This document shows positions 3,775 to 4,778 of a stretch of DNA of 64,000 bases, in pieces (positions within the stretch are counted from its first letter, which is position 1; each line of letters begins with the position of its first letter). The stretch is from Streptococcus suis (GTDB taxonomy: Bacteria; Bacillota; Bacilli; Lactobacillales; Streptococcaceae). Location of the stretch: positions 1,736,001 to 1,800,000 of the forward strand of contig CP031970.1 of NCBI GenBank assembly GCA_022354845.1, written 5' to 3'. Below the pieces are notes generated by a model. The model made no database searches and was not told the origin of the DNA. It saw only the letters and a program-made list of their open reading frames with translations. The translations under genes were made by a program, and so were the position numbers.

Positions 3775-3846
3775 TTACCCACGAACAATAATGATAATAT
3801 CCAGCACCAAAAATAAAATCGGCAAAAAATTTGAAATTTTCTTCAT
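3775..3846 (-). CDS. shp: SHP short hydrophobic pheromone precursor, 23 aa
   Basis: A 23-codon frame runs from ATG 3846 to TAA 3775. It starts MKKISNF, has a hydrophobic middle, and ends in DIIIIVRG. This matches the layout of group I streptococcal SHP precursors: positively charged start, hydrophobic core, and an Asp-led C-terminal octapeptide. The known mature peptides of Rgg2/Rgg3 systems are DILIIVGG and DIIIIVGG; here the penultimate Gly is Arg (CGT). It is divergently transcribed from an Rgg gene 80 nt away, the defining group I arrangement. In known systems the precursor is exported (PptAB), cut by Eep, and re-imported by the Ami/Opp permease to bind Rgg. A -35 TTGACT (3895-3900) and TACAAT (3877-3882) lie upstream with 12 nt or more between. 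Confidence 0.9.
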   Translation of the reverse strand: MKKISNFLPILFLVLDIIIIVRG

Positions 3847-3869
3847 ACTCAGACTTCTTTTCATTTTGT

Positions 3870-3924
3870 ATTTATTGTACAATAAATAGAACTAAGTCAA
3901 CTTTTTGTTGGGAAAATGGGAAAA
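3870..3924 (-). promoter_or_regulatory. shp promoter and candidate Rgg box
   Basis: Read on the minus strand, a tandem TTTTCCCA TTTTCCCA repeat (3909-3924) lies just upstream of TTGACT (3895-3900). It is followed by the palindrome ATTTATTGTACAATAAAT (3870-3887), which supplies TACAAT as a -10 in both directions. T/C-rich repeats abutting the -35 are where Rgg2/Rgg3-type regulators bind in related streptococci. The 15-bp spacer to TACAAT is short, which suits an activator-dependent promoter. Confidence 0.6.
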
Positions 3925-3926
3925 CT

Positions 3927-4778
3927 ATGAAATCAAAACTTGGCATCACACTTAGAAAAGTTCGTAAAGGAAAACAAATTAGTCTATGCTCTGTAGCAGA
4001 TGAACATCTTTCAAAATCACAAATCTCTCGTTTTGAGCGTGGAGAATCAGAGATATCTTGTATTAGGCTCATCAATATTTTAGACAAATTACATATTACA
4101 TTAGATGAATTTCTTTTTTTACACAATGAGGACTTCACTAACACCGAATCATTTACCAACCTAATTCATTACATCCGTAAACAATATTCATCTCAAAGTA
4201 TCGAAAATATAGCACGTTTACTTTCCAATGATTCGAAGTACACTCTGAATTCTTTTGAGAAAACAATGGTAAAATCCATTCTATATACAATGGATTCGAG
4301 CATCATTCCATCAGATGAAGAATTGCTTCAACTGACAGATTACCTCTTCAAAGTTGAAAAATGGGGTTACTATGAGATTATTTTATTAGGTAACTGTGTA
4401 CGAACAATTAACTACAATTCCTATTTCCTACTGACAAAGGAAATGTTAAATAATTACATCTACACTTCTCTAAATAAAACAAATAAACGGATAGTAACTC
4501 AGCTAGCTATCAATTGTTTTATTCTTAGTATCGATAAGGAAGAATATTCTAACTGTTCCTATTTAATTGATAAGATAAAAGAATTGTTGGATAATGAATT
4601 GAACTTTTATGAACAGACAGTCTTTCTCTATGCGACTGGTTACTATGAATTTAAGTGCCAATCAGGTACTGGAATTAAAAAGATGAAACAAGCCATACAA
4701 GTTCTTGATATTTTAGGAGAGGATGAATTAAAACTACACTATACTAACCATTTTGATAAACTGGTAAATAAGGAATGA
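3927..4778 (+). CDS. rgg: Rgg family transcriptional regulator (SHP receptor)
   Basis: This 283-residue cytoplasmic regulator has an XRE-type HTH at residues ~5-60 (KLGITLRKVRKGK, then HLSKSQISRFERGESEISC), with the conserved Cys of Rgg proteins in SEISC. An all-helical Rgg/GadR/MutR C-terminal peptide-binding domain follows (WGYYEIILLGNC, LNFYEQTVFLYATGYYEFK). These stretches closely resemble Rgg2/Rgg3 of pyogenic streptococci. I choose ATG 3927: it starts right at the HTH and gives the usual family length, whereas the upstream in-frame start adds 32 residues of promoter sequence. It is divergent from shp and presumably controls shp and the MFS gene in response to the imported peptide. Confidence 0.9.
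   Translation: MKSKLGITLRKVRKGKQISLCSVADEHLSKSQISRFERGESEISCIRLINILDKLHITLDEFLFLHNEDFTNTESFTNLIHYIRKQYSSQSIENIARLLSNDSKYTLNSFEKTMVKSILYTMDSSIIPSDEELLQLTDYLFKVEKWGYYEIILLGNCVRTINYNSYFLLTKEMLNNYIYTSLNKTNKRIVTQLAINCFILSIDKEEYSNCSYLIDKIKELLDNELNFYEQTVFLYATGYYEFKCQSGTGIKKMKQAIQVLDILGEDELKLHYTNHFDKLVNKE

What the first reader, a model, noticed from the sequence alone, without database searches (positions are those of the whole stretch)
3775..4778. Unannotated SHP pheromone gene with a variant mature peptide (DIIIIVRG) paired to an Rgg
A 23-codon gene too short for routine annotation encodes a group I SHP precursor divergent from rgg. Known Rgg2/Rgg3 pheromones end DILIIVGG or DIIIIVGG; here the penultimate Gly is Arg. 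A charged residue next to the C-terminus could change receptor specificity, create a private signalling channel, or abolish signalling. The likely output is an MFS transporter, unlike the usual targets.
Basis: partly seen in the sequence, partly recalled or inferred. Interest (0 to 1): 0.8.

Follow-up and report, generated by a model that had tools for sequence, protein, structure and literature searches.

The report
Rgg3 pheromone locus with altered signal
A Streptococcus of the suis group carries a well-known peptide-signalling switch whose signal peptide is altered at the tip while its receptor and the single exporter gene behind it look intact, so the strain may listen to neighbours more than it speaks.

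Summary
A 23-codon gene (3775-3846, minus strand) encodes MKKISNFLPILFLVLDIIIIVRG, divergent from an intact rgg (3927-4778). It passes NCBIfam's SHP2/SHP3 model (46.3 bits, cut-off 38). VRG occurred in 1 of 284 Streptococcus genomes searched; one other C-terminal Arg variant (DIIIIVGR) turned up.

The reading changes. Departures from DIIIIVGG, or loss of shp, are common in this clade. This shp departs in other ways too (ribosome site, residue before the mature peptide, pN/pS), while the receptor has no burst of private changes. A weakened signal with a retained receptor (a listener) is likelier than a private channel. The MFS output is not unusual: it is the orthologue of S. pyogenes qimJ and stands behind variable biosynthetic genes in other rgg3-shp3 loci. 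Here those enzymes are absent.

A side finding is two covarying RNA hairpins behind shp, mostly beside such genes and absent from Rfam. Neither peptide activity nor strain-level conservation could be tested.

The parts
3775..3846 (-). shp gene, 23 codons, MKKISNFLPILFLVLDIIIIVRG (an in-frame ATG at 3864 would give 29 aa)
3775..3801 (-). codons of the predicted mature octapeptide DIIIIVRG and stop
   Evidence: cleavage before Asp by analogy with SHP1555 and SHP3 (PMC3679016, PMC3150281, passages)
3854..3862 (-). Shine-Dalgarno region of shp; weaker than in the 11 other SHP genes compared
3871..3886 (.). perfect palindrome TTTATTGTACAATAAA in the shp promoter (the -10 lies inside it by inference)
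   Evidence: read; largely conserved
3907..3922 (-). conserved promoter box TTCCCATTTTCCCAAC; named the Rgg box here by position and conservation only
   Evidence: one match in the genome at up to 1 mismatch; the backwards control also gave one
3927..4778 (+). rgg3-type receptor/regulator, 283 aa, intact; dN/dS 0.09-0.12 against 7 orthologues
3724..3773 (-). two tandem covarying RNA hairpins directly behind the shp stop codon
2454..3668 (-). MFS exporter, orthologue of qimJ; the only gene found behind shp on its strand before unrelated genes

Best explanation
This is an rgg3-shp3-type quorum-sensing locus in a Streptococcus of the suis group. Shown by sequence: an intact Rgg3-type receptor, a conserved promoter box, a divergent shp gene, and one downstream gene on the shp strand, an MFS exporter orthologous to qimJ. 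Inferred from the family: the SHP precursor is exported and cut before Asp, re-imported by the oligopeptide permease, and bound by Rgg, which switches the shp-MFS promoter on. Inferred here: the altered tip DIIIIVRG, together with the weaker ribosome site and the Leu at the cleavage junction, makes the strain's own signal weak or silent, while the receptor still fits DIIIIVGG from other streptococci. The strain would then mainly listen, and answer by making an exporter whose biosynthetic partner genes are absent, plausibly for self-protection. Rgg3 represses in S. pyogenes and the close relative Rgg0939 activates in S. pneumoniae; with no Rgg2 in this genome the activator mode is the likelier, but on either mode an inactive peptide leaves the promoter off until outside signal arrives.
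For: Rgg is 83-90% identical over nearly its whole length to orthologues in many species, scores 511 bits to a solved chain that I recall as S. thermophilus Rgg3, and is under purifying selection (dN/dS 0.09-0.12 in 7 comparisons); so is the MFS (0.09-0.23 in 3). Private receptor residues are 6, against 0-39 in the other 27 of 28 aligned (2 truncated of 30 rows dropped). shp departs in several ways: pN/pS 0.43 against 0.14-0.31 in 7 relatives; the weakest Shine-Dalgarno of 12 shown; Leu before Asp in 2 of 28 (Met 24, Val 2), the other Leu being the S. cuniculi gene with a run-on tip. Lacking the last Gly, SHP3 had significantly decreased activity (PMC3150281, passages). Altered or missing SHPs are frequent: of 46 loci, 14 encode DIIIIVGG, 4 DIIIVGG, 2 DIIIIAGG, 8 other forms, and 18 have no intact ATG-started SHP. 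DIIIIVGG induced shp of other species in reporter strains (PMC3679016, passages). Published parallel: one S. thermophilus SHP/Rgg target operon holds only the transporter in 264 of 265 strains, and its SHP was not detected in three strains looked at (PMC12445099, passages). Eep-like and oligopeptide-binding proteins are in the genome.
Against: No activity was measured; Arg could be tolerated. The 23-codon gene is too short for a firm selection test. The ORF, start codon and most of the leader are intact, so shp is not a clear pseudogene. Some altered SHPs sit before long enzymes (DIIIIVGR before a 1,123-aa NRPS-like protein; DIIIIIG before a 956-aa one; DIIVIVNW before a lanthionine synthetase), so an altered tip does not require loss of enzymes. 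In the S. thermophilus parallel, one of the three strains without detected SHP carries the complete operon. The receptor's peptide pocket was not examined in structure, and 14 of its residues are absent from the seven receptors that I grouped as DIIIIVGG-type, some changing charge (H81, D102, K216, E219, K251, E267; in one of the seven, L062, the SHP leader is broken).
Confidence: 0.5

Rival explanations
1. The Arg variant is a working autoinducer: Arg is tolerated at position 7, the strain signals to itself with DIIIIVRG and may still answer DIIIIVGG. Ordinary drift within a functional system.
For: Intact ORF, leader, promoter box and receptor; score above the NCBIfam cut-off; another species has Arg at the last position before an NRPS-like gene and the MFS.
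Against: Relaxed features of shp; lack of the last Gly of SHP3 decreased its activity (PMC3150281); ending GG kept in 22 of the 28 intact SHPs.
Confidence: 0.27
2. A private channel: peptide and receptor have co-changed so that DIIIIVRG, and not DIIIIVGG, activates this Rgg.
For: VRG was found in 1 of 284 genomes; 14 receptor residues are absent from seven DIIIIVGG-type receptors, some changing charge.
Against: Only 6 private residues in all, within the range of the set; low dN/dS; shp looks relaxed rather than selected.
Confidence: 0.1
3. The whole module is decaying: enzymes gone, shp failing, receptor and exporter next.
For: Small leftover-looking ORFs behind the MFS (1704-2150, DUF2326); broken rgg copies in relatives (L019 at 215 aa, L077 at 170 aa).
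Against: rgg and MFS are full length with low dN/dS; database proteins 95-98% identical to the MFS come from other sources, so this exporter recurs.
Confidence: 0.08
4. Sequencing or assembly error at one codon.
For: One genome only; no reads or sister-strain DNA could be reached.
Against: A one-contig genome rated 100% complete; the other departures of the same gene do not depend on that codon.
Confidence: 0.05

Closest known systems
Rgg3/SHP3 of Streptococcus pyogenes with its qim operon (Spy49_0450-0460)
   Different: S. pyogenes keeps DIIIIVGG, a second pair Rgg2/SHP2 and nine further qim genes; here no Rgg2, no enzymes, and tip VRG
Rgg0939/SHP0939 of Streptococcus pneumoniae D39
   Same: Precursor MKKISKFLPILFLVMDIIIIVGG differs at 3 of 23 positions; lone Rgg3-like regulator (89.7% to Rgg3 in PMC5597970), an activator there; variable operons behind it in other strains
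   Different: 12-gene transcript and canonical tip in D39; several pneumococcal strains have a precursor cut short at DIIII (PMC5597970 Table 2)
rgg-shp-MFS locus of Streptococcus saliviloxodontae (L003/L151)
   Same: Rgg 90%, MFS 93%; the MFS directly follows shp with no enzymes between
   Different: Mature peptide DIITIVGG; hairpins not recognisable
SHP/Rgg gp_sali_7 of Streptococcus thermophilus (PMC12445099)
   Same: Target operon reduced to the transporter in 264 of 265 strains; SHP not detected in three strains
   Different: Peptide EGIIVILVG (Glu first, group II-like) and a RaS-RiPP operon; one of the three strains has the complete operon; transporters were not compared

Membership tests
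SHP2/SHP3 (group I) pheromones, NCBIfam NF033797 | Score above the curated cut-off | tested here: met
   46.3 bits against 38
SHP2/SHP3 (group I) pheromones, NCBIfam NF033797 | Divergent from its rgg, with Asp opening the hydrophobic mature part | tested here: met
SHP2/SHP3 (group I) pheromones, NCBIfam NF033797 | Mature peptide ending in GG | tested here: not met
   ends RG; 22 of 28 intact SHPs compared end in GG. GG is usual, not universal, so I do not take it as defining and membership stands
SHP2/SHP3 (group I) pheromones, NCBIfam NF033797 | Secreted, re-imported, and induces its own promoter | not testable with these tools
   needs mass spectrometry and a reporter
Rgg3-type regulators | Full-length Rgg, close to characterised Rgg3 proteins | tested here: met
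   PF21259 and TIGR01716 above cut-off; 511 bits to a solved Rgg
Rgg3-type regulators | Repression of shp without peptide | not testable with these tools
   Rgg3 represses, Rgg0939 activates (PMC5597970)
Rgg2/Rgg3 antagonist pair as in S. pyogenes | A second, Rgg2-type regulator in the genome | tested here: not met
   only other match in the genome at E 1e-3 is 24% identical
qim operon | Enzyme genes qimA-qimI between shp and the MFS | tested here: not met
   106 nt between shp and the MFS; only the qimJ orthologue is present there
Intrinsic terminator (for the hairpins behind shp) | G+C-rich stem followed by a run of T | tested here: not met
   no T run in the window copy and not reported by the terminator scan, whose one hit lies at 4875-4906. 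The L099 copy has a T run

The most novel reading that the evidence does not exclude
The Rgg3 promoter works as an eavesdropping switch for export-based protection: strains lose the signal and the biosynthetic genes but keep the receptor, its promoter and an exporter, and turn the exporter on when neighbours broadcast DIIIIVGG, the cue that those neighbours are making the exported product. The locus given would be caught midway, with a damaged signal; relatives with a transporter directly behind the promoter and no shp at all (L074 and L071 for MFS; L005 and L016 for ABC) would be the end state. The paired hairpins behind shp would set how much of the transcript passes from signal to cargo.
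Probability: 0.25. Interest if true: 0.65.

Novelty: new variant of a known kind. Interest (0 to 1): 0.36.

Why it matters
DIIIIVGG is shared by several streptococcal species. A strain with the receptor and an exporter, but an altered signal, would be a natural case for asking whether quorum-sensing receptors are kept for listening to competitors. It needs one reporter strain and two synthetic peptides to test. The hairpins behind shp are a separate, unexplained and conserved element in a much-studied regulon.

Tried and rejected
Private channel by receptor co-change: private residues counted in 28 aligned Rgg proteins (rows L019 and L077, truncated, dropped of 30); nothing unusual.

Arg elsewhere: the genus-wide pattern gave DILIIVRL in nine genomes; the two that I read have no SHP leader and no Rgg. 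Viral contigs gave 0 matches for the VRG pattern. Plasmids gave no match for the rgg-shp stretch, phages 3 partial ones.

Co-decay of signal and enzymes: there is a tendency by eye but clear exceptions, the species are related, and cargo was labelled for part of the loci only, so I claim no statistic.

Second promoter for the MFS or a wider regulon: the promoter box occurs once in the genome at up to one mismatch, but the backwards control also gives one; no second target was found by this box.

Rfam for the hairpins: none up to E = 1 in 3500-4000. Intrinsic terminator: not supported in the window copy. A search for shp, rgg and terminator in the held papers listed 8 of 19 papers; I looked for hairpin or terminator passages in two, PMC5597970 and PMC3150281, and found no such element described.

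Strain-level test of Arg: not possible; the protein search takes no query under 40 aa and gives no DNA, and no metagenome scan is allowed.

Papers: listings with starts of abstracts seen; passages read of PMC12445099, PMC13361665, PMC3679016, PMC3150281, PMC13059722, PMC4162386 and PMC5597970, plus section 8 of the last in full. Search for the string DIIIIVRG in the held library: 0 papers. The name Rgg3 for the solved chain is recalled.

Full report
What is there. The window is part of a one-contig genome of 2.03 Mb. Its glutamate dehydrogenase is 99% identical to the best named database protein, one of S. suis, with further S. suis proteins at 96-98%, and its Rgg is nearest, among named proteins, to those of S. 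parasuis and S. suis at 92-93%. I call it a Streptococcus of the suis group and do not name the species. On the minus strand at 3775-3846 lies a 23-codon gene, MKKISNFLPILFLVLDIIIIVRG, and divergent from it at 3927-4778 an intact rgg of 283 codons. Behind shp on its own strand comes an MFS transporter (2454-3668), then small leftover-looking ORFs and HAD-type genes.

The pair belongs to a known family. Rgg matches PF21259 and TIGR01716 far above cut-off and a solved Rgg over its length with 511 bits. The peptide passes NCBIfam NF033797, SHP2/SHP3 pheromones. Of 284 Streptococcus genomes, 71 have an Rgg match at E 1e-40 or better. In related loci SHP-like ORFs end 147-163 nt from the rgg start (one at 139), 152 nt here. 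The promoter box TTCCCATTTTCCCAAC is largely conserved in an alignment of 27 loci picked for having an SHP tail; it occurs once in this genome at up to one mismatch, and so does the backwards control.

The tip. A broad pattern for group I tips matched in 46 of 284 genomes (50 places; backwards control 4). Only this one ends in RG, and one other real SHP, of Streptococcus sp. DD12, ends in GR. In 46 loci with Rgg at 70% or more (one per record; two from the same genome, some near-identical species; three partial rgg pieces, L028, one in G173 and one in G021, left out) 14 encode DIIIIVGG, 4 DIIIVGG, 2 DIIIIAGG, and 8 other forms: DIIIIVRG, DIITIVGG, DIIIIIG, DIIIIVGGWTS, DIIIIVGR, a run-on DVIIIVGG, DIIVIVNW, DIIVIVGG. 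The remaining 18 have no intact ATG-started SHP (17 with none and L054, frameshifted; several of them keep an SHP tail without a usable start). Published pneumococcal strains include precursors cut short at DIIII (PMC5597970 Table 2). So change or loss of the SHP is frequent in this clade, and VRG is one more instance.

Is shp under the same care as rgg? Three results say not. Its pN/pS against seven relatives is 0.43; those relatives score 0.14-0.31 (23 codons, so weak). Its Shine-Dalgarno is weaker than those of the 11 others shown. The residue before Asp is Leu in 2 of 28 and Met in 24. The receptor, by contrast, has dN/dS 0.09-0.12 in 7 comparisons and 6 private residues against 0-39 in the other 27 of the alignment. 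Fourteen of its residues are absent from seven receptors grouped as DIIIIVGG-type, and I cannot say whether any touches the peptide. SHP3 without its last Gly had significantly decreased activity (PMC3150281); I found no test of an Arg at the Gly before it in the passages read.

The output. The MFS is 81% identical over its length to the gene that ends an operon of at least nine genes behind shp3 in genome G175. Its genes read shikimate dehydrogenase, xylose-isomerase-like, F420 ligase, oxidoreductase, SAM synthetase, a protein with only a sub-threshold match, glycosyltransferase, UDP-glucose dehydrogenase, MFS (a short gene before the dehydrogenase was not scanned). This is the published order of the qim operon of S. 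pyogenes, whose last gene qimJ is called an LTA-flippase homologue (PMC13059722 Table 1). G175 also carries both published S. pyogenes SHP precursors, so I take it to be S. pyogenes. In 11 of 17 loci searched (10 distinct genomes, L023 and L150 being one contig) the same MFS is present at 81-93%; six of the 17 have none. Between shp and MFS stand, for example, an NRPS-like protein, a D-Ala-D-Ala-ligase-like protein, NUDIX and phosphopantetheine proteins, in L144 in pieces. Other loci put a lanthionine synthetase, a ThiF-methyltransferase, or ABC transporters behind the promoter. In the window and in S. saliviloxodontae the MFS follows shp directly. In L074 and L071 an MFS (69% and 31% identical) follows the promoter with no shp, and in L005 and L016 an ABC transporter does. 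Beyond the MFS, two HAD hydrolases and ftsY follow in L143 (the query), L151, L149, L144 and L145, two HADs in L013, two weaker HAD matches in this genome, one weak HAD match in L023; L141 and L142 show none, and L020 only FtsY-like matches on its other side. Cargo therefore seems to be exchanged between shp and the MFS, often at one chromosomal place. Variable cargo behind this regulator is already published for S. pneumoniae (PMC5597970), so that is not new.

Mechanism. By analogy: precursor export, cleavage before Asp with Eep, uptake by Opp, binding to Rgg. An Eep-like protease and an oligopeptide-binding protein are in the genome; the PptAB exporter was not looked for. Rgg3 represses and Rgg0939 activates (PMC5597970). 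No Rgg2 is present here. My best reading is an intact receptor and exporter with a weakened signal. A published parallel is an S. thermophilus SHP/Rgg system whose target operon is only the transporter in 264 of 265 strains and whose SHP was not detected in three strains, though one of those three has the complete operon (PMC12445099).

A second element. Directly behind the shp stop are two hairpins, TTAGGTGTACACCTAA and TCTTTAGAGTATCTAAAGA here. In 14 sequences chosen from 19, 95.7% of cells pair, 7 of 15 pairs change on both sides (at most 4 when the partners are slid), and no shuffle of 500 reaches the observed values; the structure was drawn from these same sequences, and the left-out L014, L018, L019 and L020 lack or do not match the second hairpin. 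L003, L004, L010 and L017 have shp without the element. A 20-base pattern found it in 11 of 284 genomes, each time beside an intact or broken shp; by number alone this does not exceed the backwards control, which gave 13 hits at up to one mismatch, while the 11 real ones had none. The covariance model matched in 45 of 284 genomes at E 0.1, many weakly. It found 23 places at E below 1e-6: 19 beside an intact or broken shp by coordinates and 4, in close relatives, without one directly before it (three of these about 1.1 kb from an SHP tip). Twelve of the 23 are its own training genomes; of the 11 new ones, 7 are beside shp. Rfam has nothing. A partial terminator, a processing site or a recombination border are all open; in the window copy there is no T run.

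Verdict. It is a new variant in a known family, more likely a weakened signal than a private channel, with a usual rather than an unusual target gene. Its value is as a cheap test of listening without speaking.

Noticed in passing
window 3724-3773, minus strand; also L012, L021, L022, L038, L051, L055, L057, L062, L077, L099: Two tandem covarying hairpins directly behind the stop codon of shp3-type genes, mostly found beside such genes and absent from Rfam.
   Followed up: partly
L005, L006, L007, L008, L016, L025, L074, L071: Rgg3-type receptor and promoter kept, shp lost or broken; in those read for cargo (L005, L016, L074, L071) a transporter gene lies directly behind the promoter.
   Followed up: partly
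L163-L166 (genomes G124, G131, G068, G167): The same paired hairpins without an SHP directly before them; in three of the four about 1.1 kb from an SHP tip.
   Followed up: partly
window 1704-2150 and 2245-2349: A 148-aa DUF2326 ORF and a short ORF that looks helix-turn-helix-like by eye (not searched) between the MFS and a HAD-type gene, possibly remnants of another unit.
   Followed up: no
L171 (MN270258, S. gallolyticus phage record, source pig): A shp gene encoding DIIIIVGG with the hairpins and a cut-short rgg, so the cassette also sits on DNA recorded as phage.
   Followed up: partly
PMC4162386, Table 1: SHP2 and SHP3 precursor sequences appear exchanged there compared with PMC13361665, which gives DILIIVGG for SHP2 and DIIIIVGG for SHP3.
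   Followed up: no
L141, L142, L143, L144, L145, L149, L151: The same MFS stands behind shp while the genes between shp and MFS differ between species; in five of these seven two HAD genes and ftsY follow it.
   Followed up: partly
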